IMG/VR virus record: IMGVR_UViG_3300047476_000645
Location: 1 to 30,717 of that record
Reading direction: 5' to 3' (one strand)
Origin: a virus
Length of the DNA: 30,717 bases
Shown here: in pieces, positions 9,468-27,533 of the stretch
Layout: every line of letters begins with the position of its first letter
Numbering within the stretch: position 1 is the first letter of the stretch
Notes under the pieces: generated by a model
What the model saw: only the letters and a program-made list of their open reading frames with translations
Database searches by the model: none
Told to the model about the DNA's origin: nothing
Position numbers and translations under genes: made by a program

Positions 9468-9771
9468 CGGCTTGGGCTTTTTGTAAAAATTTAGAGCGTA
9501 GCCAATTGAATAGTTCGGGTGATAAAGACCCAGACACGGAACACAAAACAGTCTTATAAAAGGGGTCTAGGCTTGTCTGGTGGACGGAGAAGTAGCAGAT
9601 GATGCCTACTATAGTTCCTGCCGCCACCTTCCGTATCCAGCGTGTCGTGTTGTACTTCTCATCGGTAAGGATGAGTCTAGCCAACATACCAAGACCGCCT
9701 AGAATGCCAAACACCCAGCCAGTTTTCTTGAACTCTTCTAGGATATGTTGGATGGATTGGTCATCATTCAT
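9454..9771 (-). CDS. Phage holin with about three membrane segments
   Basis: Holin of 105 aa. Hydrophobic segments lie at about 17-35 (TGWVFGILGGLGMLARLIL), 48-63 (KVAAGTIVGIICYFSV) and 70-91. The N-terminus is charged and the C-terminus is basic then acidic, the usual plan for the superfamily III (LydA-like) holins. It would form holes in the inner membrane to time lysis and, because the endolysin has its own export signal, may act mainly as trigger. It overlaps the giant gene upstream by 8 bases and the spanin downstream by 14, so the lysis genes are translated as a coupled set at the end of the late transcript. Confidence 0.78.
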   Translation of the reverse strand: MNDDQSIQHILEEFKKTGWVFGILGGLGMLARLILTDEKYNTTRWIRKVAAGTIVGIICYFSVHQTSLDPFYKTVLCSVSGSLSPELFNWLRSKFLQKAQADEQN

Positions 9772-12700
9772 ACTGTTTCATCTCCTGTTTAAGGATTTCC
9801 TCAACCGCTTCGTACTCATGGTAGGTCTCAGCCATGAAGACAGACGCAGGGTTGAAGATACGGAATATGCTCCTGCCCTTGTCGTCTATCTTGATGATGG
9901 TATACTTGAGTCTGTTCCTCACGATGACCCAGTCCTCGAAAGGCTTGTCTGTGCTAGGGCCAGAGGACTGGATGATGTCAAAGTTAGACACATCGCTGAC
10001 GGTCTTCTCTTCTGGTGACTGGCTTCTGGCTTCTTCAGTCTTAAGGGCTTGTCCTTGAGTCGTGGCGTTCTCTTCCGTGGCGGCGTTGGGGTCAACGACA
10101 GGCTTGTCCGACTTGCGGCGAACCCACAGTTGGTGACCATCCTTGCTTCGGCGTTGCTCAAAGTACTTGGAGATGATGCCCTCCTTCTGGGGGGTGATGA
10201 GCATGGACTTGGTTCTGGTTCTGCCATTGGCATCCCAGACAAGGTATCCCTTCTCTCCGTACTGACCGATACCTTCAAGTTTGTCCGCCATCAGTTGTCT
10301 GAAGAACGGCTTACCCTTGTTCTCCATGTACAGGTTCAGAACCTGCTCGGAGAAGTGACCAGCGTTAGACCAGTTGATGAGCAGACCCTGTCTAGGGTCT
10401 TGGGTAGGCAGTGACTGCTCCCCGACTCTGAACTCGTCAAACTTTGTTTTACCTCCCTCAATCATGTCGGCGGCTCTCTTCACACGCATGACATCGTCTT
10501 CAAATAAGCGTATCATGACCTGTGCTTCAGTCAGATTGTCCGTTGAAGCAAAGCGTGTCGTAGGTATCTCGTGAACCTTCTGTCCGCTCGGAGTATTGAA
10601 CCGCTCTCCCTTGAAAAAGATGGTGAACCGTTCTCCAGTCTTACCCTTTTTGTCGGTAGTAACCTCACGCTTGATGAAGTATCTTCCGTCTATGGTGTCT
10701 CTGAAGTTGGGCTTGTTCTTGTTGTCCCAATCGATGGAGGTACTTCCGTCCTTGTGCTTCCGCAGGTCTGTAATCCTAAGGTTGTCCTTCATGGACAGCA
10801 GGTTATCAAGAGCGAACGGACGAGTGCTGATGAAGCCCTGTGCGTCACGCTTGTACTTGATAAGGGATGCCTCCGTGGACAGAGCCTCGGCAAGAATGTG
10901 GTTAATTCTAGCCCACTCGTCCTTGATGATGGTGTCGCTTTGCCCGAATGAAAACTGCTCAAGGGAAGCATCATCAAGGATAGCCTTGTTCTTCTGCTTG
11001 TATCTTTTCTTGGTCTCACGAGCGGCTTGGATGTTTGAACGCTCGTTGTCCTTCATCATCTGGGTGATGGTAGGCATATCCAAGTTGAACCGTTCCTGCG
11101 GAGGAAGGTTCTCATACATCTGCTTGATGGAGTAGTTACGCTCTATGCCGAACAGCGAGTCCTCGGTATGTCTTGCGACTTCCTGCTTCCAGATGTCCAT
11201 GAAGCCCTGCATACGCACGAGCGTGTCGATGGGCAGGTGACCAATGTCACTTCTGGTGGCGAACGGAGACTTCTTTCTTGCGAGTATGGGTCTAAGTTCC
11301 TTCGGGGTGACATCAGAAACGCCAGCGTCGATGTACTTCTGAACCTGTTCTTCAGACCATCCCTTCTTCTCTGCGATTGCGTAGATACGAGCGATGTCAT
11401 CCTTGGAAAGCGTGGTGTGGATGCTGTCTCTGAAGTTAAACTTCTCACCCTTAGTGCCGACAGGAACGACTCCGTTCTTCATCAGATACATGGCCTGTTC
11501 AAGCACCTCGATTGTGTTGAGGCTTCTGTCAACTGCGTCTGGGTTCTCTTCTCTCCACTGCTTGAACTCAGCATCTGACATCTGTTTCAGTTTCTTCAGT
11601 GCGACTTCTCTGATGCCAGCATTGTCCGTAATCAAGTCCAGTGCATCCACAACGAACGAGCGTACGAAACGCTCCTTCTCAGTGGCTGTCTTGAGGTTAT
11701 CCATTATTCCGTTCGTGAACGCCTCGTGCTGTTTCATCTTCTCTTCGGGCACTCTGTTAATCTTGTCGGCAAGAAGGCCGTTGGCAGACTCCCTAGGGAA
11801 GAAGAACTTTATGAGGTGTGCGTCAGCCGCAGACATCGGCATGGACGGATTTTTCTCGTGGTACGCCCTCTTGGCATGGGCAAAGTGGATGTAGTCGGCA
11901 AGGAACACAGGTCTCTTGGAGTTTCTTGCATCCTGTCTGACGAAATTCCTTTGCTCTCCGCCTATGGTAGAAGAGGGTGCGTCATTTCCAGAGATGACTC
12001 CAGCGTTATGCGTACCCTCGGTGTAGGATGTGCTTAAGTCCCATTGTCTCCAAGAAGACTGGAACAGGTCACTGCTAATCTCTGGGAAAGAGTAGGCGAT
12101 GTACTGCGTAGAAGGGTCAGCAGGGTTAATCTCGACCCTAGAGTCCTTGATGTTCTTGAGGCCAAGGTTTCTGGCAAAGTCATCATACTGTCTGAACAGT
12201 TTTGTGATGCTGGACTTACGCAGTTTCTCTATCTCACGGAGACGCTGTCTGTCCTGCTTGGTGTTTCTTCTGGCGATGGTCTCTTGGTAGTCCAACTGTT
12301 TGTACTCAGCCACGAGACGCTTGAACTCTGCAGGAGCGTTTTCGTCTCCAGCCTTTTTGAGTATTTTTTCGTAGCGGCTTTTGAGGGCTTCCTTCTGGCC
12401 TCTAAGTTTCTTGAGTTCAGCCTCAAGTCTCGGGATGTCCTTAGGTATCTCGGCTCTATACTGTCTAAAGAACGGAAACTCAGACTGTATGTCCGTGTTC
12501 ATGTCCACCAGTTCTATGCCTCTGTGGGCAAGGTTGAGCCTGTTGGCTACGATGGCAATCTTCTCTACCGTCTCGTCCAGAGCCTTGACCGTATCCTTGA
12601 GGGCGATGCCGTCTTTGCCAAGGGAAGAGAGCAGTTCCTCGTCCTTAATCATCTGGACTGCCTCGTTGTGGTCTATGCGACCTTCCATGATGTCAGTGTC

Positions 12701-15700
12701 CAGTTTCTTGATGAAGTCTCTGTTCTTCGGTTCGTTAGCCCATCTGAAACCCGCTTCACCAAGGTTCTTTTCGGTAAGTTTGTTACGCAGATGGTGGTGG
12801 ATGGATATGTCCGTGTTGGCAGGGGTCAACTCTATGCCAAGGATGTTCTTAATCGAGATGTCTCCCTGTGAAATGCCAGCATCGTAGTAGTTCTTAAGAT
12901 TGATAAGCCTTGCCTTGAACTCTTCAGTGTAGTCCTTGACGGTTCTGTGGTACTCATGTCCTTTACCAAGAACATTGTCCACATCCACAAGGTATGACGG
13001 CTCTCCGTAGGTGACTCCCTTGCCCTGCGGACGAGATGTACGCAGTTTGTTGAAGTCGAACTTAGAGACGACATCAAAGTCGTGCAGTTTTGCGGCTTCA
13101 ATGAACGACCTTTCAGCCGTTACCTTTATGCCCTTGGCTTGCAGGTATCTCTTGGAAAGGAAGTCTATTTTGCCCTTGATGCCAGACAGGTCTTCATCTC
13201 TTCCGTACAGACCATCGTGCATCTGAGTCCACTTGTCCTGCAATACGGCAAACTTGTTTCCGTTTTCTATGAACGACCTCTGAAGTTGTTCAATCATGCC
13301 TACCACATTTCCATCCCTCGGGACAGCCATACGATATTCGTCAAAGTCTATTTCTTTAGACTTAGCAGATATACGATACATGAGTTCCTCAACACGCTCT
13401 GGACTAAAGCCTTTCATCTTATCCAGAACCTTCATCTCGTGCAATTGAACAGCCGCCGCAAGATGCATGGCCTCGGCTTCGTCAGCCGCCAGTTCAATTT
13501 CGTCTAGTTCGCTCTTGATACGCTCTATAATCTTAGACTCTTCAAGCGGCTTCTTTCCCTTAAGTCGCAGTTCGTTATTAATACGAGTCTTTTCGTTTCT
13601 GTAGAAGCCTCTCTGCTGTTTCTCAACTTCGTTAAGTTCAGCCATCAGTTTCTTAATCTGAGGGATGATGCTGTCTGCGTGAGTTCCTTCTGCAAGGAGC
13701 GTACCAAGTCTGTTCATCTCAGTAAGACGCAGACCGTTGATGAACTGGTTGAAGTTCTTGAATGAAGACTCCGCAAACTTCTCAAAAGCCTCACTGGAAT
13801 TACGACCCTTGTTGGTCGCCATTCTTGCGAGTTCTGCATTACGCTCCTTCAGTGAGCCAAACTGAGTTGTGATGATTTCTGCTCCGTACTTTTTGTCTAT
13901 TATGAACGAGAAGCCCAAGTCTTGGTTCTTAAATCTCTTGAGTCTGGTAATCTCGTCTCTGAGTTTAACCTTCTCGTCAATCGTCAGTTCTTTCTTCTTG
14001 TCCAGTTTGTCGCTCTTCTTGACACCGCTGTCGAGTTGTTCGCTAAGAGAGGCTTGTTCTGCCTGTAACTGCTCCATACGCTCAACGCTTCCGAACTTGT
14101 TGTCACGGAGGATTTCATCGACCTTTTGCAGACGCTCTTCCAACTTGGTACGCTCAAACTCGGTTATAGGTCTGGTGGCGTTAGCCTTACCAGATGCAAG
14201 TTGCTCCTCAAGTTGCTTAATCTTTGCACCGACATCGTAGCCCATCTCTGCGTTGAATATTTCCTGTGCAAGGAAGTAGTCTCCGTTTCTGAAGAGTCTG
14301 AACTTGTCGCTTGAGACTTCGCCTGTGCCTCTGGACTGCTTGGCAACCGCAAGGATAAGGTTCTTCATGTTGCCTTTAACCTCTTGGTACGGCCCCTCAA
14401 TCAGTTGTTGTGCAGGGATGTCTCCAGTTCCAATCTTGTTGCGAACAGTCTGGGTTGCTTCCTGTAGGAACAGTTCAACCGTTTCGTCTATGACGCTCAG
14501 AGGAACATCCTTAAGAGACTTCTCCCCTGTCTTTTTATCAACTTCTTCTGTTCTAAATTTGTACTCTTTTCTAGACAGAATATTTCCGTCCTTGTCGTAC
14601 ATGGCAAGGGTTCTCTTGGTGTCTCCAGCAAGTTGTGTCTCAAGAACCGTAAGGTGCGTACCATCAAAATTCCAAGCCCTCTGCACATTCTTTACGACAC
14701 CGTTTTCGTGTACGGCAATGACACCGTTTGTCTTAGAAATGTCCGTAGGCTTCCATCTGACTCCATAGAAACCTTCCTTCTCAAGTCGGTTGATGGACTC
14801 GATGTAGTTACGCTTTATCGACTCACGGATTTTAGCAAGGCTCTCCTTGCCTCCGCTGTCGTAGAAGGCATACAGTTCAACGCTTCTGGCAATGGCTTCT
14901 GGAGTACCAAGTTCGATGAAGCCCTTTGCGGACTCGTCATACAGTTTGGCTCTAATCTTATCCAGCACATCGGGGTTGATGTCCTTAATGTGGTAGGCGG
15001 ACAGGAAGTCCATGATGCGTTGCTTGGCATCGTCAGAGATGATGTTGTCAACCTCTCTGGTCTGTCTGTCCCAGATGGCTCTGGCCTCGTCAGCCTCAAT
15101 GGCTATGTTACGCTTTGATGCGACAACAGCCTCGTAGGCGTTTACGATTTCCATCATATCCTTTCTGGCGTATCCTCTGTCCGTCTTGATGAGAGTCTTG
15201 GCGAACCCGATGTTTCGTTCCATGAACGCTTTCATCATCTTGTTCTTTGCGTAGGTGGACAACACAAGGTTGTCGTCACCAAGTCTGCCTGTACCAAGGA
15301 TTGAAGCGTCAGCCAAGAAGACCAACTGCTTCTGGCGTTCAGCCATATTGTCTATGAGTCCAGCGATGCCTTGGTTCTCTCTAAGAACCCTAGCGATTAC
15401 AGCCTCAGATATGGACGCTTTGTCAGATATGCCCTGTCTGATGAGTCTTGCCTGTTCTGCAGTAAGACCACCCATGTCTTTTCTGACTTCAGCAACCCTC
15501 ATGTTTGCCTCTTCCTTCTTACCAGCCTCGACCTCCTTGTATAATTGACCCCACTTTTTGTAATTCTTGAGTGCCATGTATTCGGCCTCAGACATTTCAA
15601 CCCAGTGACCAAGTGACGGTATACCAGTCTCAGCAAGCGTCTTGGGGGTGATGCCATACTTGCTGGCGTTCTCTATGAGAGCAGAGTCAGCAGTAATCGA

Positions 15701-18700
15701 AACCTTTGGGATGTATGTTTCCCTTCCGAACGGAGCAATAAGTTTGGTCTCCATTGAGCCAACGCTCTGTACATAGGACGCAAATCCGTCCATTGAGTAC
15801 TGGGCAATTTGTTCAAGAACCTCAAGCGGTGCGTCTTGAAACTTCTCCTTAAGCACACGAACCATACGAGGAGTCATAGCCTCCTTAAACCTCTTGTGCG
15901 TCTCTGTCGTAAACACCTTCTCGTCCTTAAGGTACTTCAATGCATCATCGACCAGAGTCTGGTTGAAGTTGATGGTATCCGTTAGGCTTTTTTCAGTAAT
16001 CTGTTGTTCAAACTTCGTTCTAGGAACGACATTTCCTTGGTCATCAATCTTATACTTGAGCAGGGCTGTGATGTCATCAGAGCCAGCCCTCTTGACCTGT
16101 TCTCGGTACTTGTCCGCAATGGTCTTTGCGGGTTGGAACATGAAGTCATTCGCACCCTTGACCTGTCTGTTTTCGACAAACCGTCTAGACTCAAGGATTG
16201 CAACGGAACTGTACTCGTGACCGCTGATAGGGTTGTGGTTCATGTAGCCAACGGACTCTATTCCGTAGTCTCTGAACAACTTCTTGCTGGTAGCAGTCAT
16301 CAGCCACTCATCCATCGTAGGCATGGAAGAAGAGATGGCATCAGTGTCTCTCTGGAATAAGTCAAAGATACGGTTTCCGCTCTCATCTTTCATGCGGAGC
16401 ATATCCTCCATGACCTTTCCGACAGGAGTTCCTGTTGTCTCCGCTATGCGTCTGGAGACCATATCGACAGCCGTACGCATATCCGTACCGAACGGAATGT
16501 CTGAGATGTCTAGGTGCGACTGAGAGTCGATGTACCCGACACGCATCTGCTTGTCCTCAAAGAACCCAGCCTCATGGATGTCGGGGGTAAAGTGAAGCCA
16601 GCCGTTCTTAGATGTGTACTGGCTACCTCTTAGTGAGGGAATTGCAAACTCCATCTTGTCGGCAAGACCGTCGTCTACATAATCGAAAACTCTTGTGCGG
16701 TCTGTACGCACCTGTATCTCTGAAGACGGAGTACGGAGGGCATAAACGGCAATGTGTTCGCCTTCCTTATTTCTGTAAACCGTGTCCTTGATGATGTGTC
16801 CAGCACCGTACGGAATGATGTTTCCGTTGTTGTCTCTGCGGGTGATGGCAGGAGAGAAGTTGGCCTGTGACCGCTTGTACGCTTCGTTATGGTCATATCT
16901 GAAGCCCTCTCCGTTCTCAGCCACAATCTTGGACATTCTGTCCACACGGAAATTCTTCATTACCGTGAAGGTCTCTGGCATAGCATCACGCATCTGGAAG
17001 TCCAGAGGGGTGTTCTTCCAGCGTCTTTTCTTAGCCATCTCCTTTGTCGGGTGGTATCCGATGACAGCGTTGACGATATCTCGCTTGAGGGCGGCATCTC
17101 TTTCTCCTCCCTTTCCTCTTGAGAACAGTTTCAGTCCAGCCTCTGCATGATTGCCAAGGCTGTAATTGCTCAATAGAGCCTTGACCGCTTCTCTGAGGTT
17201 CTGCTGTGTTGTGAACAGGTTTCTGACACCCTTGTAGTGGAGGTCTCCGTCATCTATCTTGTTGTAGATGAAGTCTTCTCTACGCAGGTAAGCATCCCAG
17301 TCGAACACTTGTACGAGCAGTTTGGCTTCTCCAACCGTGTACTTCTGTATGCCATCCTTCGGCTTACCCTTAGGCTTGGTCTGGAAGTACATATTGAGTT
17401 CAACAGGAACGAACCTGCGTTGCTCGATAAAGTAACCCTTTTCTCTTCCATCATCGGTGGACTTCTCCATCGTGATGACGGTAGAACGTACGATGTTTGA
17501 AACCATGTCTGTTCTTCCGACTCTTGAGGTCTCGATGACCAAGTTAAGTTCACGGAGTCTGGTGGCAGTAGCCTTTCCAAGATACTGTTCAAACAGGCTG
17601 AGTTCCTTGGGGGTAGCCAGTCCAGTAATTCTGACACGAGGGTTACCCTGCCAGAAGGACTCCCAGAAGTCTCCAGTCTTTTCAAGACTCCATCTGCCGT
17701 CTCCTACCTCTCTCTCGACCTTGCGAGGTTTGCCGCCCTTCTTAGGGCCAAGTTCTGCGAGGTCTGAGGCAGTAACACCAGTCTCAGCCAGTTTCTTTCT
17801 GTGCTTTAAGAACCAAGCCCTCTCCTTGTTGACATCGATTACATCAGAAGGCTTTGTCGCTTCTGGGAGAACTTCCTTCTTAGGCTTCTTCTTAGGCTTG
17901 GCTGGCTGGTATCTGGCAATGCTTTCGCCCTGCTCGTTCATCAGTTCAAGTTTAAGACCACGGTCTGACGCAGGAAGAGCCATCAGTTCGTCTGCAAGTC
18001 CCGCTATTCTGGCGGACATCTCCTTGTTCACCTCTGCCTCAGTCTTTTTGGTCATAGAGCCAGACTCAATGTCTGTCTTTATGAGGTGGTCGAAATCGCT
18101 GTTAAGAAGGGTGTGGTTGTCTGCGTACTTCTTGTTGTTCAACGCCCAACCGTCATACATACCTTGTCCAAGTTCCTTCACATAATGCTTCATCAACCGC
18201 TCAAGCATAGGTATTCTGACTCTCTGCTTGGTCGTCTGGTCGATAAGGAACATATCGGGCGTGTCGCCCTTGATTAACTGAACGCCAGCCTCCTGCAGGT
18301 CTTTAGCCATCGTGTTGCGATAGAAGTCCTTCGCACCCTGTATCGCATTTCTGACAAGACCAAGGTCTCCTCCCTTGAGCAGGTAGTCCAGAGGCTTGTC
18401 TTCTACGAACCTGTTCCAGTAAGAGGCTAAGAACTCCTCAAACAAAGCGTTAAGTTCTGTGGCCTTCTCTCCACCCTTGAACCGCTCAATGGCTTCGTTG
18501 AACTTCTTGTACATACCAGACATATTCTCTGGCGTGTGACCGCCAGTTTCCTTGTCTAGGTTGAAGTATTGGTCTCTGAATTGCTCAAGAAGTGAAACAG
18601 CCTTGTCCTTAGGCATTCTGTACAACGCACCAAGGTTGTTTTCCGTGCCGACAAGGGCATCTACTGCGTGTTTTGTGAAAGCCTTTCCGTAACGCTTGGT

Positions 18701-20440
18701 AAGAAGAAGGCCGTGGAAGGTCTCTTCCGACACAGCAGACCTAGCGGCTCTGTCTGCGTTGATAAGAATGACGGACTTTCCGTCCTTGTCTTTAAGAAAT
18801 GTTATGCCACCAAACTCTGGGTTGGCAAGGTTCTGTCTTTCGTAAGCATCAAACTCGGCACTCGTAGACATCTCCTTAATCTTCTTCTCCGTAAGGATAC
18901 GGATAGGGTCATCTGGAAGCAGACGCTCGGCGGCGGCAATCTTAGACATGACGCTAAGTTGTCCCTGCGTTCCTGCTTCAGTGTGAGCATTCTCAAGAAG
19001 ACGCATAAGTCCTTCTTGGTTGTGGAAGTCGTAGTGGCTAGTAGCCCAAAGGAACTGCTTGACCGTATCTCTGACAGCATCTCCACCAGAAACGGTATTG
19101 TGAAGTACGCCTATCTGGTTGAACGCAGAACCGATGACAAAGCCAGTTCCAAGTCCGTGGTAGAGACCTTCTTCTCCGCCAAAGGCAAAGCCGAAAGCAC
19201 CACCATACATGGAAGAGTGAAATCCAACCTTAGTCGTATTCGTAGCCCACTGAACAAAAGGAGAAGCGTTTGCCGCCCAGAATGTAGCGACTTTTTGAAT
19301 AGGCTTGCTGGTAGACTCAAGGGCGACACGCTCCGACAGTGTCATACCTGCAATCTTGGGTTCTTCTGCGGCTAACTTTAATGCAGTCTCTCCAAGACGA
19401 CCAACACCCTCTGTCAGTTTAGCCGCACCCCAGACCATCGTGACCTTAGCCCAAGCAGGAATGGTTACTTGGTTTACGCCAAGACCTCCTTCGGCGGCAC
19501 GAACAAGACCTTCATTACCTTGGATTTTACCCTGTCCTGTAATATGGTGCTGGTGACCAGTCATGTCTGTCATGACCTCTCCGACACCCTTGTCAACCTT
19601 GGCAATCTTGGATGAAATCCACTCGCCTCCGTCTCCAAGTTTACCGAAACCTTCTGAGGCTTTCTTGAGTGCAAACGCACTGGCCTTCGTTAGATTTTCG
19701 CCAAGACCGACAGCCGCAGTAGCACCACGGAGACCCTTTGCGATTGCAGACTCTATTCCAAGGTTAGGAATAAGCCAAGAAGGGTCTGCGACATAAGAGA
19801 CCGCTTGAACAACAGCAGGGTTGGTCAAGTCTAAGTCCATACCTCCGACATTAATCGTAGGAGGAAGAATTATGCCCTCGTTCTGGTCTTTATGTATCAT
19901 CTGCCGAACCTTGAGAGCCTCTTGGTATGACAGGTATTCGTCTTCTGGAGTGCTGTGGTTGTTGAACAACATCTTGCTCAACCAAGAGTTCTTGTCGTAC
20001 TTGGCCTGTTCGTACATATACAGCCAGTTCTTAGTTCCAACAGCCGCACCTTCGATGCCAGAACCAACAACTTTAGGAACTTTAAGTGTAACCACATCTC
20101 CAGCAAGTTCGTACGCACCAGTAGCAAGGTCTGTGGTAGCCGCACCAACGGCTTCTCCAACCGTCTTCCACATGGACACCTTCTTTTCGTCCATGAACGC
20201 CTTATACTTCTTATAGTCCTCAAAGGGCATGACATACCCAAGATGACCATAACGCTTGTCCATCTCCGCCAGATACTGTCCCTTGAACTCGTCTGGTATC
20301 TGGTCTGGTATTTCTGCGTCTTGCTCTTTCGTCAGAGGAACTTCTGGGTTTGAAATAGCCTCTTCAGTCGGGAGTCTTAGTCCCTGCTGTGCGGCATATC
20401 TCTTGAGTTCTTCTGAACTAGAATAGGTAATTTCGGACAT
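9764..20440 (-). CDS. Giant virion-associated protein, 3558 aa, with ADP-ribosyltransferase-like segment
   Basis: One uninterrupted frame of 10.7 kb, a third of the window. Its place after two ejection-type genes and before the holin matches the largest internal virion protein of T7-like phages (gp16) or giant polyvalent ejected proteins. Visible parts: Gly-rich hydrophobic stretch at about 397-440 that could insert in membranes; at about 545-590 a metallopeptidase-like VILINADRAARSAVSEETFH whose expected HExxH reads EETFH; Lys/Pro linker near 845-857; at about 1283-1437 a segment resembling polyvalent ADP-ribosyltransferase domains (MRVGYIDSQSHLDISDI, then YGIESVGYMNHNP and ANDFMFQPA); long coiled coils near 2070-2160 and 2670-2750. 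No transglycosylase motif or T7/N4 polymerase motif set was found. The start overlaps the upstream stop as TAATG. Confidence 0.8.
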   Translation of the reverse strand: MSEITYSSSEELKRYAAQQGLRLPTEEAISNPEVPLTKEQDAEIPDQIPDEFKGQYLAEMDKRYGHLGYVMPFEDYKKYKAFMDEKKVSMWKTVGEAVGAATTDLATGAYELAGDVVTLKVPKVVGSGIEGAAVGTKNWLYMYEQAKYDKNSWLSKMLFNNHSTPEDEYLSYQEALKVRQMIHKDQNEGIILPPTINVGGMDLDLTNPAVVQAVSYVADPSWLIPNLGIESAIAKGLRGATAAVGLGENLTKASAFALKKASEGFGKLGDGGEWISSKIAKVDKGVGEVMTDMTGHQHHITGQGKIQGNEGLVRAAEGGLGVNQVTIPAWAKVTMVWGAAKLTEGVGRLGETALKLAAEEPKIAGMTLSERVALESTSKPIQKVATFWAANASPFVQWATNTTKVGFHSSMYGGAFGFAFGGEEGLYHGLGTGFVIGSAFNQIGVLHNTVSGGDAVRDTVKQFLWATSHYDFHNQEGLMRLLENAHTEAGTQGQLSVMSKIAAAERLLPDDPIRILTEKKIKEMSTSAEFDAYERQNLANPEFGGITFLKDKDGKSVILINADRAARSAVSEETFHGLLLTKRYGKAFTKHAVDALVGTENNLGALYRMPKDKAVSLLEQFRDQYFNLDKETGGHTPENMSGMYKKFNEAIERFKGGEKATELNALFEEFLASYWNRFVEDKPLDYLLKGGDLGLVRNAIQGAKDFYRNTMAKDLQEAGVQLIKGDTPDMFLIDQTTKQRVRIPMLERLMKHYVKELGQGMYDGWALNNKKYADNHTLLNSDFDHLIKTDIESGSMTKKTEAEVNKEMSARIAGLADELMALPASDRGLKLELMNEQGESIARYQPAKPKKKPKKEVLPEATKPSDVIDVNKERAWFLKHRKKLAETGVTASDLAELGPKKGGKPRKVEREVGDGRWSLEKTGDFWESFWQGNPRVRITGLATPKELSLFEQYLGKATATRLRELNLVIETSRVGRTDMVSNIVRSTVITMEKSTDDGREKGYFIEQRRFVPVELNMYFQTKPKGKPKDGIQKYTVGEAKLLVQVFDWDAYLRREDFIYNKIDDGDLHYKGVRNLFTTQQNLREAVKALLSNYSLGNHAEAGLKLFSRGKGGERDAALKRDIVNAVIGYHPTKEMAKKRRWKNTPLDFQMRDAMPETFTVMKNFRVDRMSKIVAENGEGFRYDHNEAYKRSQANFSPAITRRDNNGNIIPYGAGHIIKDTVYRNKEGEHIAVYALRTPSSEIQVRTDRTRVFDYVDDGLADKMEFAIPSLRGSQYTSKNGWLHFTPDIHEAGFFEDKQMRVGYIDSQSHLDISDIPFGTDMRTAVDMVSRRIAETTGTPVGKVMEDMLRMKDESGNRIFDLFQRDTDAISSSMPTMDEWLMTATSKKLFRDYGIESVGYMNHNPISGHEYSSVAILESRRFVENRQVKGANDFMFQPAKTIADKYREQVKRAGSDDITALLKYKIDDQGNVVPRTKFEQQITEKSLTDTINFNQTLVDDALKYLKDEKVFTTETHKRFKEAMTPRMVRVLKEKFQDAPLEVLEQIAQYSMDGFASYVQSVGSMETKLIAPFGRETYIPKVSITADSALIENASKYGITPKTLAETGIPSLGHWVEMSEAEYMALKNYKKWGQLYKEVEAGKKEEANMRVAEVRKDMGGLTAEQARLIRQGISDKASISEAVIARVLRENQGIAGLIDNMAERQKQLVFLADASILGTGRLGDDNLVLSTYAKNKMMKAFMERNIGFAKTLIKTDRGYARKDMMEIVNAYEAVVASKRNIAIEADEARAIWDRQTREVDNIISDDAKQRIMDFLSAYHIKDINPDVLDKIRAKLYDESAKGFIELGTPEAIARSVELYAFYDSGGKESLAKIRESIKRNYIESINRLEKEGFYGVRWKPTDISKTNGVIAVHENGVVKNVQRAWNFDGTHLTVLETQLAGDTKRTLAMYDKDGNILSRKEYKFRTEEVDKKTGEKSLKDVPLSVIDETVELFLQEATQTVRNKIGTGDIPAQQLIEGPYQEVKGNMKNLILAVAKQSRGTGEVSSDKFRLFRNGDYFLAQEIFNAEMGYDVGAKIKQLEEQLASGKANATRPITEFERTKLEERLQKVDEILRDNKFGSVERMEQLQAEQASLSEQLDSGVKKSDKLDKKKELTIDEKVKLRDEITRLKRFKNQDLGFSFIIDKKYGAEIITTQFGSLKERNAELARMATNKGRNSSEAFEKFAESSFKNFNQFINGLRLTEMNRLGTLLAEGTHADSIIPQIKKLMAELNEVEKQQRGFYRNEKTRINNELRLKGKKPLEESKIIERIKSELDEIELAADEAEAMHLAAAVQLHEMKVLDKMKGFSPERVEELMYRISAKSKEIDFDEYRMAVPRDGNVVGMIEQLQRSFIENGNKFAVLQDKWTQMHDGLYGRDEDLSGIKGKIDFLSKRYLQAKGIKVTAERSFIEAAKLHDFDVVSKFDFNKLRTSRPQGKGVTYGEPSYLVDVDNVLGKGHEYHRTVKDYTEEFKARLINLKNYYDAGISQGDISIKNILGIELTPANTDISIHHHLRNKLTEKNLGEAGFRWANEPKNRDFIKKLDTDIMEGRIDHNEAVQMIKDEELLSSLGKDGIALKDTVKALDETVEKIAIVANRLNLAHRGIELVDMNTDIQSEFPFFRQYRAEIPKDIPRLEAELKKLRGQKEALKSRYEKILKKAGDENAPAEFKRLVAEYKQLDYQETIARRNTKQDRQRLREIEKLRKSSITKLFRQYDDFARNLGLKNIKDSRVEINPADPSTQYIAYSFPEISSDLFQSSWRQWDLSTSYTEGTHNAGVISGNDAPSSTIGGEQRNFVRQDARNSKRPVFLADYIHFAHAKRAYHEKNPSMPMSAADAHLIKFFFPRESANGLLADKINRVPEEKMKQHEAFTNGIMDNLKTATEKERFVRSFVVDALDLITDNAGIREVALKKLKQMSDAEFKQWREENPDAVDRSLNTIEVLEQAMYLMKNGVVPVGTKGEKFNFRDSIHTTLSKDDIARIYAIAEKKGWSEEQVQKYIDAGVSDVTPKELRPILARKKSPFATRSDIGHLPIDTLVRMQGFMDIWKQEVARHTEDSLFGIERNYSIKQMYENLPPQERFNLDMPTITQMMKDNERSNIQAARETKKRYKQKNKAILDDASLEQFSFGQSDTIIKDEWARINHILAEALSTEASLIKYKRDAQGFISTRPFALDNLLSMKDNLRITDLRKHKDGSTSIDWDNKNKPNFRDTIDGRYFIKREVTTDKKGKTGERFTIFFKGERFNTPSGQKVHEIPTTRFASTDNLTEAQVMIRLFEDDVMRVKRAADMIEGGKTKFDEFRVGEQSLPTQDPRQGLLINWSNAGHFSEQVLNLYMENKGKPFFRQLMADKLEGIGQYGEKGYLVWDANGRTRTKSMLITPQKEGIISKYFEQRRSKDGHQLWVRRKSDKPVVDPNAATEENATTQGQALKTEEARSQSPEEKTVSDVSNFDIIQSSGPSTDKPFEDWVIVRNRLKYTIIKIDDKGRSIFRIFNPASVFMAETYHEYEAVEEILKQEMKQYE

Positions 20441-22614
20441 TATTTCTTCGGTTCGTTATACTTGTTGTAAATATCTGGATACTTGTCCTTTAGGCCAAGA
20501 ACAATTTGCTCAATTCTCTTGGCGGCTTGCTCCTTAGACATACCACCAGCAAGACCCTTTGTTGGCTTAATTTCAATACCTATCGCATCTGCCTTTACCT
20601 TTGCAGAATCTGCTATGAGGCTTCTTGTAAGTTCAAGCGTCTCAATGGTTTTGTCAACATCCTGTAGGTTTCTCCAGAATGTAGGTTCAGCCATCATGTC
20701 TCCAAGTCTTTGAGCGTCTTTTTCAGTTTCTGTACCCGGAGCAATGAAGTTCTTTCTGAATGTTTCAAGACCTCTCTGGTATGTCGTGTATTCAGTTTCC
20801 CATCTCGCTCCAATAAGAGGAAGGTTTTCATACCACTTCTTTTCCTTCCATAGGTTTACCATGTTGTCGATGTACTTGTCAGCCTTGTCGATGTCGATTG
20901 TGAGTTGTGTTAATTCCTCCTGTGCCTTTTCTGCGTTAATAATAGGCAGTTCAGACATCGGGTCTTCCTTGTTGTTTGTCTTGGCTCTGAAGACATAGTT
21001 TCCGTAGGTTCTTCCTTCACCAACGAACTGACGGAAGTAATTGTTTGCACCTTGACGCTTTATTCCAGCCTCAGTCGTAGGAGTTCTAGTAAGACCCATT
21101 CCCTCCAGTTCGTCCTGCGACTTTGTATTACCCTTTTCATCGGTATACATAACCTTGCCGCTATCGGTCTGCCATCTTCTCATTCCGCCAAACAGACCAA
21201 ACACCTTGTAGGCATCGTCTCTGGTCATCGGGAACGGCTGGTTTCTATCCTTGAATACCTTAAAAGCAGAGTCGTAAGCCTCATCAACCATTCTCTGGTC
21301 TGTCTTGTAGGCGACAATCTCCTTTGATGTGCCGACAACACTCTTTTCTTCAGAGATAATTCTGACACCAGTCGGGGCTGTTCTAGGAACAGGTTTAGCA
21401 ACCTCTGGCTTGATGCCAAGGCTCTTACCAACCGCTTCTTGGAACTGCGTGGTATTGGAATATCTTACGGCTATGTCATATCTGGCTGTGTCCAGTTCAA
21501 CATCCTTATTCTCACCCTTGGCTGAAGCGTTCCACTTAAACTGGTGGTCAATCGTAGCCCTTTGCTCTGGGAAGTTTCTTATCAACTGTTCATACACACC
21601 CTGCACGAACTGTTTCTTGTTCTTTGATGTGTTGTTTACGGCAGGTATGGTCGGGTCAAACTGTGCATCTCCAGACAGCGTCCGTGCTATGGTCGTAGAA
21701 AAAGGAGTAACTTTCTGTTCTCCAGTTGCAGTAACATCTTCAACCTTGAGACCGCTTTCCTTAAGGAACTTGTCGATGTCATCGTACCAGTCGTACATAT
21801 TATCTGGCGTTTCAAGCCAGCCAGAACGAACTTCCTTCTGTCCTTTGACTGTGACCTTCTCAGTAGGGACGATACCCTGTCTTGTCTGTATCATCAACTC
21901 CCTAGCCTCTTCCGTGCTTAAGGCTCTCTCGGTAGATTTAGCCTTAGCACCAGCAACCCTAGCCTCCGCTTCAAGCAACTTAAGTCGAGCAGGGCCAAGT
22001 ACCTTTTCTAAACCAAATCTATCTCTTTCAAGTTGCAGTTTTAGTGCATCAAGTTCGTCGCCCTTCTCACCACGAGCAATACGCCATTCAAGGTCTCTTA
22101 CTCTAAACTTAAAATCCTGCTCTTGTGCCGTTACTCTTGATTTTGCTTCTTCTCGTGCAAGTCTTAGTTTTTCTTCTTCAATCTCAAGACCTCGCTCTTT
22201 AGCCTTTCTATTAAACTTGTTCTCATCGTCCTGCTCAAACTTTGAATGAACGGTCAAAAACGATGTAAGGTCAGTCGTTGAAACGCCATCGACTCCGTCT
22301 GGCTGTTTCTGCGACTTTTTCCATAGTTCAACAATGTGCTGTGGTGCATCAGCCTTAGGCTTGTACGAAATCTCTCCAGTGGCATCATCCTCTGGGCCGT
22401 CCTGCTCCATGTACTGTTTAAGCACACTGTTGGCAAGGTATGAAGCCTTTGCCTTTTCTTCCTGTGTCTGCTGGTACTTATCAAGTCCTTCTGCGACATT
22501 TTTGCCAAACCCAGCAATAGCATTGGCAGTTTGTTCTGCAATTGCCCCTGTATACGGCAGGATGTTAATAGGTTGAACCTGTTCGTTTTGGTATCTTTGA
22601 AATGGTGAAGCCAT
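20440..22614 (-). CDS. Internal virion (ejection) protein, 724 aa
   Basis: I infer this role from position and composition. It lies between a short Ala/Gly/Met-rich ejection-type protein and the giant protein, as T7 gp15 lies between gp14 and gp16. The N-terminus (IAEQTANAIAGFGKNVAEGL at about 25-44) is the helical start often seen in such proteins. A long charged helix follows at about 130-245 (RKAKERGLEIEEEKLRLARE and onward), probably coiled coil. The rest is mixed and soluble, with a C-terminal helical domain. No catalytic motif was recognised. The stop overlaps the giant gene start (TAATG). The start at 22614 follows an A/T-rich leader without Shine-Dalgarno, 4 bases after the PP-loop enzyme gene's end. 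Confidence 0.65.
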   Translation of the reverse strand: MASPFQRYQNEQVQPINILPYTGAIAEQTANAIAGFGKNVAEGLDKYQQTQEEKAKASYLANSVLKQYMEQDGPEDDATGEISYKPKADAPQHIVELWKKSQKQPDGVDGVSTTDLTSFLTVHSKFEQDDENKFNRKAKERGLEIEEEKLRLAREEAKSRVTAQEQDFKFRVRDLEWRIARGEKGDELDALKLQLERDRFGLEKVLGPARLKLLEAEARVAGAKAKSTERALSTEEARELMIQTRQGIVPTEKVTVKGQKEVRSGWLETPDNMYDWYDDIDKFLKESGLKVEDVTATGEQKVTPFSTTIARTLSGDAQFDPTIPAVNNTSKNKKQFVQGVYEQLIRNFPEQRATIDHQFKWNASAKGENKDVELDTARYDIAVRYSNTTQFQEAVGKSLGIKPEVAKPVPRTAPTGVRIISEEKSVVGTSKEIVAYKTDQRMVDEAYDSAFKVFKDRNQPFPMTRDDAYKVFGLFGGMRRWQTDSGKVMYTDEKGNTKSQDELEGMGLTRTPTTEAGIKRQGANNYFRQFVGEGRTYGNYVFRAKTNNKEDPMSELPIINAEKAQEELTQLTIDIDKADKYIDNMVNLWKEKKWYENLPLIGARWETEYTTYQRGLETFRKNFIAPGTETEKDAQRLGDMMAEPTFWRNLQDVDKTIETLELTRSLIADSAKVKADAIGIEIKPTKGLAGGMSKEQAAKRIEQIVLGLKDKYPDIYNKYNEPKK

Positions 22615-22618
22615 AAAA

Positions 22619-23419
22619 TTAGTCCTTCATGTAGGATAGTGGAGTCTGGTCAGCCCAAGGATACCTAGAAGAAGCGTTTTCAACAACTCCCTTAAACTTG
22701 GGACAATAAACAAATTTCTTAGCATCTGTCCTTCTGTCGATGCAAGCAGTACAAGCGTGGACATAGTCTGCGTTAAAAGACCTGTCAGCCTTTTCTCTGT
22801 ACTTACCATCTACTTTCTCATACCTGTCTTTGTCCCAAGGGACATTGTGTGCCTCAATGTATTCCCATATGTCATCGTGAGACCAGTCACGAAGAGGAAA
22901 CATAAAATTCATCCATCCTTGTCCAAAACGGCTGTTAATTCTAGTTCCAGCGTCACCACCAAGGATAGGGTCACTGTCACATCCCTTGTGTCCAACCCAT
23001 AGCATATCCCAGTTTGCTTGCAGACCTAGTTGTTTAGGACGATTAAGAATGTCAATTGCACAAACCCACGGCTTTCCTTCTACAGGAGGAGTAATCCCAG
23101 TAGGACAGGTAATGGTAGATGTGTTAAGAGCGTAAATATTTTGAACCTCAAACTCATCATCTGTCTGTTGAAACAGAGAATTGCACGGACTCCAAGAATA
23201 GACTTCAAGTCCGTAGTCAGCGATTACTTTGTTTTGAAACGAGTACTTGGATGGTTGCCACGGTTCTTTGAAAAAAACAACAGGCATCTTAACGCCAAGA
23301 GTATGGAGAATGTGCAAAAGAACCATAGAGTCCTTTCCTCCAGACCAAGCCAATACGGACTTATTAGGAACTGAGAGGCCAGCCCTAATTAAATCAATTG
23401 TTTTTTCCAATTTGTTCAT
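22619..23419 (-). CDS. PAPS-reductase-like PP-loop enzyme
   Basis: This 266-aa protein belongs to the adenine-nucleotide alpha-hydrolase (PAPS reductase) family. The PP-loop SGGKDS is at 26-31, followed by LHILHTLGVKMPVVFFKEPW. Several cysteines are spaced through the protein (CPTG near 110, CDSD, and CTACID then YCPK near the end). The C-terminal ECGLHxG motif of true assimilatory CysH is absent, so sulfate reduction is doubtful. Members of the family also activate nucleotides for tRNA thiolation or DNA phosphorothioation (DndC type). The position is odd: between two ejection-protein genes of the late operon, so it is made with the virion. It starts on a TAATG overlap with the upstream gene. 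Confidence 0.82.
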   Translation of the reverse strand: MNKLEKTIDLIRAGLSVPNKSVLAWSGGKDSMVLLHILHTLGVKMPVVFFKEPWQPSKYSFQNKVIADYGLEVYSWSPCNSLFQQTDDEFEVQNIYALNTSTITCPTGITPPVEGKPWVCAIDILNRPKQLGLQANWDMLWVGHKGCDSDPILGGDAGTRINSRFGQGWMNFMFPLRDWSHDDIWEYIEAHNVPWDKDRYEKVDGKYREKADRSFNADYVHACTACIDRRTDAKKFVYCPKFKGVVENASSRYPWADQTPLSYMKD

Positions 23420-24264
23420 TAAATAAATGAAACAGCGGCGGCCCCACCTGCCTTACTTCCAAGAAAAGAACCAGCCGCACCAATAAGTCCACCCATCAAG
23501 CCACTGCTGGCCTGTGCGTTTGCGGTAGCCGCTTGCATCGCCATATTCTGATTTGCGGCAACAAGGTTAGCATTATACTGAGACTCTGGTTGGAGATATG
23601 CAGGGCCAAGGTTTTGGTTGTATTGCATTGACATACCCGCAAGACCCATCGGGGAAAGAGCAGACATACCGCTTTGAACAAGCGGAGACCCATACTGTTG
23701 GTATGCGTTTCCTGATATAGTCATATCGTTGCCGAGAACAGTGTTAGAGAACATTCTGGCTCTATCTTCACGCTGTAGACCCAATTGGTAACCGCCAAGA
23801 ACTTCCGCACCTATGCCACGATTAGTATTTCCAAGACCTCTGGCTGTAGCCGCCGCACGAGCCATCTGCTGTGCCTGTGTCTGCATTTCTGGCGTAAGAC
23901 CCATCCCAGCATCAAGGTCTGACATGGCCTGTGCCCTCATTTTGTTCTGAAGAGCCGCTCCACCTCCAAGACTAGCCTCATATGTCTGTCGAGAAGACTC
24001 TGCAATAGGTGTCAAAGCACCAGCAAATTCTCTACCATACTGGGACAGCAGAGCAGAACTATCGCCCATTACCTCTCTATAAAAACTCTTAAGGTTGTCT
24101 GCCTGTCCAAGCATCTGCTCCTTCTGCATTGCTTGCCACTGAGGTATGAGTCTCCGCTCTGCCTCCATCATTTGAGGAGCAAGGTCTATCTGTGCCCGAA
24201 TTGAGTCTGACATCTCCTTGTAGTAGTCACGAGGAGGCGGTGCTGAAACTTTTTTAGAACCCAT
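23419..24264 (-). CDS. Small ejection protein (T7 gp14-like by position), 281 aa
   Basis: The protein begins with a Lys/Ser/Pro tail (MGSKKVSAPPPRDYYKEMSD), continues as Gln/Met/Ala-rich helices, has the RAAATARGLGNTNRGIG stretch at about 135-151 that is common in podovirus internal virion proteins, and ends with a glycine-zipper-like hydrophobic segment (GLMGGLIGAAGSFLGSKAGG near 255-274) able to enter a membrane. These are traits of proteins released first through the tail to build the ejection channel. Its order before the 724-aa and 3558-aa proteins matches gp14-gp15-gp16 in T7. It lies 4 bases after the GNAT-like gene and overlaps the PP-loop gene as TAATG. Confidence 0.75.
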   Translation of the reverse strand: MGSKKVSAPPPRDYYKEMSDSIRAQIDLAPQMMEAERRLIPQWQAMQKEQMLGQADNLKSFYREVMGDSSALLSQYGREFAGALTPIAESSRQTYEASLGGGAALQNKMRAQAMSDLDAGMGLTPEMQTQAQQMARAAATARGLGNTNRGIGAEVLGGYQLGLQREDRARMFSNTVLGNDMTISGNAYQQYGSPLVQSGMSALSPMGLAGMSMQYNQNLGPAYLQPESQYNANLVAANQNMAMQAATANAQASSGLMGGLIGAAGSFLGSKAGGAAAVSFI

Positions 24265-25922: not shown

Positions 25923-27533
25923 TTATTTTTTACTCTGATTAGTTTTGAATTGGTTAATAGCGTAGATGTACGCAGACCTAATAGAAGGTCTAAGGTTTGT
26001 AGTACTAAACTTGAGTTGGATTCCTGTGCCAATCTTTCGGACAGGAACACGCCTTGCAGAGTCTTCAGTGACAGCCACTCCAAACTTGTCTGTGACGCTA
26101 ATTACATCTGGATTATAGACCTCGATGGTTGTTTCAATCTGACTGCCAGCGTCACAGACCATTTCTACTTCGGATGTGCTGAACCGTTTGTCACCAATAC
26201 TATCAAATGTGTACCTTCTTGTCTTAAGGATTCCGTTAATCTGGTTAGGAGTGAATGCCGAAGGATTAAGCGTTGTAGGAATGAAGAACGGAAGGATAGG
26301 CGTTCCTGTGCTAGGGCCATACTCATCCCAGTTCAGTTGCTCCATCAGGAAGAAACCTTGGTCTCCATCCATAGCGTAGAGCCTACGCTGATTGTCCTTC
26401 TTGCCTACGAGGAAAGAGAACACATCAAAGCCAGCAGGGTAAGTATCAACAGACTCCCACGCCTTAAGGATGAAATTGTACACCAAGATGGCGTTGTTAT
26501 CCTGAGAGTTGTCTAGAGGAACGGCAAGGTAGTACCTGTTATTCCAGTAGGTAGCAACCGCTCTATACGCATACTGCCTGTTAATTCTCTGAATGACATC
26601 GTCAATCGGAGAAGACATAGGGTCTGCAACCGTAAGAAGTCTGACGGACTCGTTAGAGCCTACGGCCTGAGGGGTAAGGAAGTAGACACCATTGTCAGAG
26701 AGGAAGATTACTCCTCCGTTAGCCTGAACAACGCTTCTCTTGGCGGAGCAACCAATGTCTGTAACGAGCGTCTTGATGAAAGATGTCGTACCAAGTGGGT
26801 CGCTTTCTGCGTATCTTCCAAGGCCGATGTTTACATAGAAGATGCTGTTACGCATTAGAACCAAGAACTCGTTAAGAGTCCAAGGAGCGACAGAAACAAC
26901 CTCATCGTTACCGCCTTCGTTGAATGTGAACGCATCAAGAGCGTCCCAATGGTTAGGCTCTAGGTAGTTGCTAACTGAAACAGTGTCACGGTTTCTTGCC
27001 GTGTTTGTTTCACCGTGATGCTTGCCAATAGCAACAAGTCTATTGGCGTAGTACATAAGCGATGTGCAGTTAGGAAACTCCACACCAGTACCACTGGAAG
27101 CAAGGGCGGTAACCCCTGTTCCAATATCCCACACTAGAGGTCGCTTAGAAAACCCTCTGGAGATGTATACCTTATCTACGGCTTGAATCACATCACAGCC
27201 GTCCTGCGTTGTGATAGTCTCGCCTACAGGGAAGTTAACCTTGATAGACAGTAGTTCCGTCTGAGGGTTGTAAGAATACAGACCGTCAGTAACTACGATT
27301 ACAAAAATCTCCTGACCTGTACCATTGATATACGAGCCACTTCCGTAGACCTGTTGCCCGACAAGGGCGATGGATGTCTTACGCTGTAGCCCCTTTCTGA
27401 CGGTGGCTACACCTCTATCCAGTCTGAAGTTCTGAGACTGAGACACAACGCCTTTAGGCAATGCAGAAGGATTGTCACGGCTGTTAAGCCCGACAAATCC
27501 TAGGTCTCCGTCTCTGACAACTTCACTGGGCAT
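25923..27533 (-). CDS. Tail nozzle/hub beta-propeller protein, 536 aa
   Basis: The N-terminus (GLNSRDNPSALPKGVVSQSQNFRLDRG at 15-41, split by family as 'N.r..p..L..g..v.a.N...r.g.l..R.G') and repeated blade-like strands (VYISRGFSKRPLVWD, NRDTVSVSNYLEPNHWD near 180, FLVLMRNSIFYV, LSDNGVYFLTP near 280) are typical of podovirus tail proteins that form the nozzle below the adaptor (T7 gp12 or P22 gp10 role). The C-terminal part is a beta-rich domain. It would seal or conduct DNA in the short tail. Start ATG at 27533 overlaps the end of a frameshifted mini-gene as TAATG. Three bases separate it from the tail fibre. Confidence 0.78.
   Translation of the reverse strand: MPSEVVRDGDLGFVGLNSRDNPSALPKGVVSQSQNFRLDRGVATVRKGLQRKTSIALVGQQVYGSGSYINGTGQEIFVIVVTDGLYSYNPQTELLSIKVNFPVGETITTQDGCDVIQAVDKVYISRGFSKRPLVWDIGTGVTALASSGTGVEFPNCTSLMYYANRLVAIGKHHGETNTARNRDTVSVSNYLEPNHWDALDAFTFNEGGNDEVVSVAPWTLNEFLVLMRNSIFYVNIGLGRYAESDPLGTTSFIKTLVTDIGCSAKRSVVQANGGVIFLSDNGVYFLTPQAVGSNESVRLLTVADPMSSPIDDVIQRINRQYAYRAVATYWNNRYYLAVPLDNSQDNNAILVYNFILKAWESVDTYPAGFDVFSFLVGKKDNQRRLYAMDGDQGFFLMEQLNWDEYGPSTGTPILPFFIPTTLNPSAFTPNQINGILKTRRYTFDSIGDKRFSTSEVEMVCDAGSQIETTIEVYNPDVISVTDKFGVAVTEDSARRVPVRKIGTGIQLKFSTTNLRPSIRSAYIYAINQFKTNQSKK

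What the first reader, a model, noticed from the sequence alone, without database searches (positions are those of the whole stretch)
16100..16650. ADP-ribosyltransferase-like segment inside the giant protein
Residues about 1283-1437 contain MRVGYIDSQSHLDISDI, which resembles the 'v..vyLni.NPl.l.D' strand, and later YGIESVGYMNHNP, SSVAILESRRF and ANDFMFQPA, which resemble the 'GyDGi.Y.N......vvFdp.qIks' end of the ART domain found in phage polyvalent proteins. If real, the phage could modify host proteins at once on entry, as T4 does with Alt.
Basis: inference. Interest (0 to 1): 0.7.

Follow-up and report, generated by a model that had tools for sequence, protein, structure and literature searches.

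The report
ART-like domain without classic catalytic triad
A giant protein that this virus of bacteria probably injects into its host contains a module with the fold of ADP-ribosyltransferases (enzymes that modify host proteins), but in this whole virus group the usual catalytic residues are missing, so it is either a retired enzyme now used for binding or structure, or an enzyme with an unfamiliar active site.

Summary
The motifs are real. They lie on the minus strand, in a 3,558-residue ORF (window 9764-20440), at residues 1299-1438; the whole module spans about 1217-1438. Single-sequence searches (Pfam, PHROGs, PDB) find nothing. Two lines point to an ADP-ribosyltransferase (ART) fold. First, with 17 relatives AlphaFold2 gave a usable model (pLDDT 69.7, pTM 0.71); 49 of the 50 best solved-structure matches are ART-superfamily entries (NatT, ParT, tankyrase, PARP), and the other is the cyanophage A4 pre-ejectosome at a YHGT/TYFS region. 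Many top viral matches are polyvalent ART proteins. Second, in a scan of the whole giant protein against an ART-PolyVal profile, this region ranks first. Catalysis is not supported. The strand-1 histidine (17 of 18 ART-PolyVal sequences) is Ala, Ser, Thr, Gly, Pro or Asp in 17 relatives, and no acidic residue is fixed at either candidate strand-5 site. The strand-2 site is an invariant histidine (H1283). Purifying selection is strong. The giant protein has no cysteine (about 43 expected), as in N4 virion RNA polymerase, which suggests injection. Best reading: a conserved, ART-PolyVal-like pseudo-enzyme or atypical ART in an ejection protein.

The parts
9764..20440 (-). giant ORF, 3558 aa, no cysteine; predicted ejected internal virion protein that carries the module
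   Evidence: relatives of 3505-3733 aa where complete
16127..16792 (-). ART-fold module, residues about 1217-1438
   Evidence: AF2 model of residues 1205-1440, fold searches, profile ranking
16730..16771 (-). strand-1 element NKEGEHIAVYALRT (1224-1237); counterpart of 'd.nGeP.vvYHGT' in ART-PolyVal
   Evidence: hhalign register; strand 1232-1235 in the model
16739..16741 (-). A1234, at the place of the catalytic strand-1 histidine; S8 T3 G2 D2 A1 P1 in the 17 sequences
16568..16603 (-). strand-2 element GWLHFTPDIHEA (1280-1291); counterpart of 'GfyFTnd...A..Y'
16592..16594 (-). H1283, at the strand-2 triad site; invariant in 17 relatives and in the L030-L033 group
16499..16537 (-). strand-3 element GYIDSQSHLDISD (1302-1314); counterpart of 'vylniknPl'
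16271..16492 (-). helical insert, residues 1317-1390 (weak LPD22-like score, 13.3 bits against cut-off 28.6)
16232..16264 (-). strand-4 element GIESVGYMNHN (1393-1403); counterpart of 'GYDGiiynn'; Asp site is E1395, variable
16169..16216 (-). strand-5/6 element EYSSVAILESRRFVEN (1409-1424); counterpart of 'yvvFNPNQIKS'; no conserved Asp/Glu before the strand core
16127..16153 (-). ANDFMFQPA (1430-1438), F.FSPAK linker that ends the module; a similar NFSPA linker lies just upstream (residues 1194-1198)
20440..22614 (-). neighbouring 724-aa ORF without cysteine, possible second ejection protein
23419..24264 (-). 281-aa ORF without cysteine, possible third ejection protein
25923..27533 (-). tail-tube-B / head-closure-like protein that places the virus among short-tailed phages

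Best explanation
Residues 1217-1438 of the giant protein form an ADP-ribosyltransferase-fold module of the kind found in phage polyvalent proteins, inside a cysteine-free internal virion protein that is probably ejected into the host with the DNA. The canonical NAD-transfer residues at the strand-1 and strand-5 sites are absent throughout the family while many other residues are fixed under purifying selection. The module is most likely a pseudo-ART kept for binding (NAD, ADP-ribose, nucleic acid or a partner protein) or for assembly of the ejection apparatus. Shown: motifs, family, conservation, loss of the canonical residues, no cysteine. Supported by prediction: the fold. Inferred: delivery, and binding or structural rather than catalytic use.
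For: AF2 model with 17 sequences: pLDDT 69.7, pTM 0.71. Solved-structure comparison: rows 1-5 are NatT, ParT and TNKS2 (Z 5.2-5.7), the rest of the 50 rows are PARP1/2 and tankyrases (Z 4.6-5.0) plus cyanophage A4 pre-ejectosome residues 1418-1600 (Z 5.0), which in its ORF27 read SLYHGT...GTYFS. Viral fold search: 3 hits at E<=1e-3; several top hits are named PolyVal ADP-ribosyltransferase or ART-PolyVal-like. Profile ranking and shuffles. A divergent group with 37-39% identity elsewhere in the protein has, at the same place, a 124-residue version whose profile scores Prob 21.8%, E 1e-3 against ART-PolyVal. Triad sites. dN/dS of the module 0.06-0.14 in three pairs where synonymous change is not saturated, similar to or lower than the rest. 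No cysteine in 3558 residues, 0-3 in relatives, about 43 expected.
Against: PDB Z-scores are modest (best 5.7) and Foldseek E-values against PDB do not pass 1e-3 (best 0.037); TM-scores of the leading hits are low (0.27-0.41). Only the best of five AF2 models is near pLDDT 70 and strand 1 is among its weaker parts; the earlier 7-sequence model (pLDDT 49) matched no ART. Absolute profile probabilities are low and the full-length alignment needed a permissive setting. So many invariant polar residues (Y1222, R1223, N1224, E1228, R1271, H1283, D1287, H1309, S1313, N1403, E1423, N1424) would also fit an active site.
Confidence: 0.52

Rival explanations
1. An atypical but active enzyme: an ART-fold NAD-user (transferase or NADase) whose active site was rebuilt around invariant residues such as H1283, R1223, E1228 and R1271, acting on the host right after entry.
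For: H1283 sits at the strand-2 triad site and is invariant in 17 sequences and in the L030-L033 group; about a dozen further invariant polar residues; strong purifying selection. H-H-h ARTs also use a strand-2 histidine (PMC7955679), but need one in strand 1 too.
Against: No conserved histidine or arginine at the strand-1 site and no conserved acidic residue at either strand-5 candidate. The L030-L033 group keeps H1283 and the GE pair but not YRN, RG or W.
Confidence: 0.27
2. A classical T4-Alt-like ART that modifies host proteins on entry; the triad is present but misaligned here.
For: ART fold in a probably ejected protein; ARTs are the commonest protein-modifying domain of polyvalent proteins (PMC5512222).
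Against: The YHGT motif is absent from all 17 family members and the 4 divergent ones; the hhalign register and the model agree that the site is VY[ASTGPD]L.
Confidence: 0.08
3. Not an ART fold at all: another alpha/beta module, with chance motif resemblance and a misleading model.
For: No match to the ART-PolyVal Pfam model at E<=10, modest Z and TM-scores, one good model of five.
Against: Structural, profile and motif evidence point to the same superfamily in the same register. Control profiles (RES, N4-like metallopeptidase) did not pick out this region.
Confidence: 0.13

Closest known systems
ART-PolyVal (Pfam PF18760; H-Y-D ART family of polyvalent proteins, prototype Roseovarius Plymouth podovirus 1 vRNAP)
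   Same: order of elements (d.nGeP.vvYHGT / FTnd..A / vyL.i.NP / GYDGi / vvFNPnQI / F.FS linker), location in a giant virion protein, fold-search hits
   Different: no strand-1 His, strand-2 Tyr replaced by invariant His, no conserved Asp; extra N-terminal and helical inserts; not reached by the Pfam model
Anabaena phage A-4L ORF27 (PDB 9k3a chain B, pre-ejectosome)
   Same: ART-like region in a large ejection protein of a short-tailed phage; model matches residues 1418-1600 at Z 5.0
   Different: A-4L keeps YHGT and TYFS; no sequence similarity found to this family
NatT (8qnl) and ParT (6d0h) toxins
   Same: best structural matches, Z 5.3-5.7
   Different: bacterial toxin-antitoxin proteins; a small RES profile (4 sequences) shows no sequence link
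T4 Alt
   Same: idea of an ART delivered with the DNA
   Different: Alt is an R-S-E enzyme (PMC5512222); no such triad seen here
LRRC9 and other pseudo-ART families (PMC7955679)
   Same: ART fold with divergent active site, predicted pseudo-enzyme
   Different: eukaryotic, unrelated context

Membership tests
ART superfamily (fold) | split beta-sheet ART fold | tested here: met
   by prediction only: model; rows nearly all ART-superfamily at Z 4.6-5.7; top hits include PolyVal ARTs; moderate confidence
ART superfamily (catalysis) | H-Y-[EDQ], H-H-h or R-S-E active-site residues | tested here: not met
   strand 1: S8 T3 G2 D2 A1 P1; strand 2: H17; strand-5 candidates: 1395 H8 Q4 D2 N2 E1, 1412 A12 S3 T1 V1
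ART-PolyVal (PF18760) | match over the Pfam cut-off (31.2 bits) | tested here: not met
   no match at E<=10 in the window or six relatives; the RPP1 prototype scores 36.5
ART-PolyVal (PF18760) | His in strand 1, Tyr in strand 2, Asp in strand 5 (PMC5512222) | tested here: not met
Phage polyvalent / ejected virion protein | very large protein encoded among virion genes | tested here: met
   3558 aa; between head/tail genes and a holin-like gene
Phage polyvalent / ejected virion protein | several recognisable effector domains in one chain | tested here: inconclusive
   no Pfam or PHROG domain in the whole protein; metallopeptidase guess not supported
Phage polyvalent / ejected virion protein | present in the virion and delivered into the cell | not testable with these tools
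   only indirect: no cysteine, gene context
RES-domain toxins (PF08808) | sequence relationship to RES profile | tested here: inconclusive
   no signal, but the profile held only 4 sequences
Alt/VIP2 (R-S-E) ARTs | R-S-E triad | tested here: inconclusive
   R1223 is invariant but lies about ten residues before the modelled strand 1; no Alt profile compared

The most novel reading that the evidence does not exclude
An ART-fold module in a phage ejection protein has replaced the classical triad by a new conserved centre around the strand-2 histidine H1283 (with R1223, E1228, R1271 as candidates), giving an NAD- or ADP-ribose-related chemistry, or a ligand-sensing function, not seen in known ARTs.
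Probability: 0.25. Interest if true: 0.7.

Novelty: new variant of a known kind. Interest (0 to 1): 0.45.

Why it matters
ARTs in phage virions are expected to act on the host at once after entry. Here an ART-like fold is kept under strong selection without the known catalytic residues in a whole group of uncultured short-tailed phages, so a domain that looks like an injected enzyme may serve the ejection machine or use another chemistry. The solved cyanophage A4 pre-ejectosome, which holds a YHGT-containing ART-like region, makes the structural role testable.

Tried and rejected
Single-sequence and profile searches against Pfam, PHROGs, PDB sequences and GenBank phages found no relative of the module. 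LPD22: weak hits of 13-15 bits in the helical insert only, cut-off 28.6, and control genomes ring too; rejected. First AF2 model with 7 sequences: too poor, its fold matches are unrelated proteins. A degenerate zincin (EETFH...FEEFLASYW) around residues 572-680: profile comparison with N4-like metallopeptidases (4 sequences) gave nothing. RES toxins: no sequence signal. N4-like RNA polymerase: no vRNAP Pfam hit; not pursued. No relatives in bacterial genome contigs. Phage C75C1, which shares the tail protein, has a giant protein in which this module was not found. ART-superfamily members absent from the fold-search rows are not excluded.

Full report
What is there. The window is a 30.7 kb virus record. 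The segment lies on the minus strand inside one open reading frame, 9764-20440, of 3558 codons. Upstream are a head protein, a tail-tube-B/head-closure-like protein and two further ORFs without cysteine; downstream a holin-like ORF. This is a podovirus late region, and the giant ORF sits where internal ejection proteins are usually encoded (inference).

Relatives. No match to the module exists in GenBank phages, PDB sequences, Pfam or PHROGs. Scans of IMG/VR gave relatives at 34-84% identity, all inside giant ORFs (3505-3733 codons where complete). Four more distant contigs (L030-L033; 37-39% identical in residues 575-775) have at the same place a compact 124-residue module, ETVFKSPSGEPYRVFASNKEGGVHYAWFD..A...GYISLRNNEVLDM...MGYKAVVARTNDGDRVVAFTDFNKFKQ...NFAPKS.

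Is it an ART fold? (a) An ART-PolyVal profile was built from 18 sequences: the Roseovarius Plymouth podovirus 1 vRNAP, three N4-like vRNAPs, crAss-like cr130_1 and bacterial sequences, of which RPP1, L082, L083 and L084 were checked as over the PF18760 cut-off. The giant-protein alignment was cut into 231-residue slices and each compared by hhalign. The two slices that start at 1233 and 1310 rank first (28.5, Prob 16.6%); the next unrelated slice scores 20.6. For the exact domain the score is 24.3, against 10.5 reversed and at most 19.1 for 60 column shuffles. The compact L030-type module gives Prob 21.8%, E 1e-3. A permissive alignment pairs KEGEHIAVYALRT with the 'nGeP.v.YHGT' strand, GWLHFT with the 'GffFT' strand and GIESVGY...SSVAILES with 'GYDGii...vvFNPN'. 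(b) With 7 sequences AF2 failed (pLDDT 49); with 17 it gave pLDDT 69.7 and pTM 0.71. Of the 50 solved structures listed, 49 are ART-superfamily entries (NatT Z 5.7, ParT Z 5.4, tankyrase 2 Z 5.2, then PARPs and tankyrases), and the other is cyanophage A4 pre-ejectosome chain B, residues 1418-1600 (Z 5.0). That chain is Anabaena phage A-4L ORF27, whose residues from 1425 read YHGTRVKGWTPGNGGVGEWGSGTYFS. In the viral library the leading named hits include PolyVal ADP-ribosyltransferases. Z values under 8 are not proof; the specificity of the list is what persuades. I put the ART fold at about 0.85.

Is it an active ART? Iyer et al. describe the polyvalent ART site as His in strand 1, Tyr in strand 2 and Asp in strand 5 (PMC5512222). 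In the ART-PolyVal set 17 of 18 have the strand-1 His. In the window family the site (1234) is S8 T3 G2 D2 A1 P1 and the following Gly is always Leu. The strand-2 site is H1283 in all 17 and in the L030 group. The GYDG Asp site (1395) is H8 Q4 D2 N2 E1, and the PARP Glu site before the last strand is Ala/Ser/Thr/Val. So two of three sites are lost and the third is changed to His. The module is not decaying: dN/dS is 0.06-0.14 in three pairs with measurable synonymous change (0.18 in L030/L032, where the alignment is less sure), similar to the rest of the protein; in two pairs synonymous sites are saturated.

Is it delivered? The protein has no cysteine in 3558 residues; from the other ORFs of the window about 43 would be expected, and relatives have 0-3. 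The lack of cysteine in N4 and roseophage vRNAPs has been linked to entry into the cell (PMC2784036). The N4 vRNAP is ejected with two further proteins (PMC12633501). Delivery here is inference.

Conclusion. The functional extrapolation to Alt-like modification is not supported. The best reading is a conserved pseudo-ART or atypical ART in a giant ejection protein. A biochemical test of the module decides between the two.

Limits. The fold rests on one good model of five; the model coordinates could not be inspected, so the spatial clustering of the invariant residues is untested. The paper on the cyanophage A4 pre-ejectosome was not held, so I do not know whether its authors recognised the ART-like region. 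The assignment of the strand-5 acidic site in ART-PolyVal is mine; both candidate columns were checked.

Noticed in passing
window 9764-20440 (-), 20440-22614 (-), 23419-24264 (-): Three ORFs (3558, 724 and 281 aa) have no cysteine at all, while the other listed ORFs of the window hold 73 in about 5,000 residues; giant relatives have 0-3. Looks like a signature of the ejected proteins.
   Followed up: yes
L098 20116-25269 (-) (Anabaena phage A-4L ORF27, PDB 9k3a chain B): Residues from about 1425 read YHGT...GTYFS...GVDAL...LVINPDAV, an ART-PolyVal-like pattern in a solved pre-ejectosome protein annotated only as tail protein; not detected by Pfam, hhalign to ART-PolyVal Prob 78%.
   Followed up: partly
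window about 18116-18727 (-), residues 572-775 of the giant protein: Among the most conserved stretches of the giant protein (EETFH...FEEFLASYWNRF..KP.DYLLKGGDLG); unknown function, metallopeptidase guess not supported.
   Followed up: partly
window 16847-16858 (-) and 16127-16144 (-): Two similar FSPA/FQPA linkers bracket the module, like the 'DIRFS' linkers between domains of polyvalent proteins; the region before the first one may be another domain.
   Followed up: no
window 22619-23419 (-): PAPS-reductase-like N-terminal match (E 2.7e-12) in an ORF between the ejection-type genes.
   Followed up: no
L006 6389-17188, residues 1598-1644 of the giant protein: Weak XendoU endoribonuclease score (E 0.014, 15.1 bits, cut-off 32.3).
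   Followed up: no
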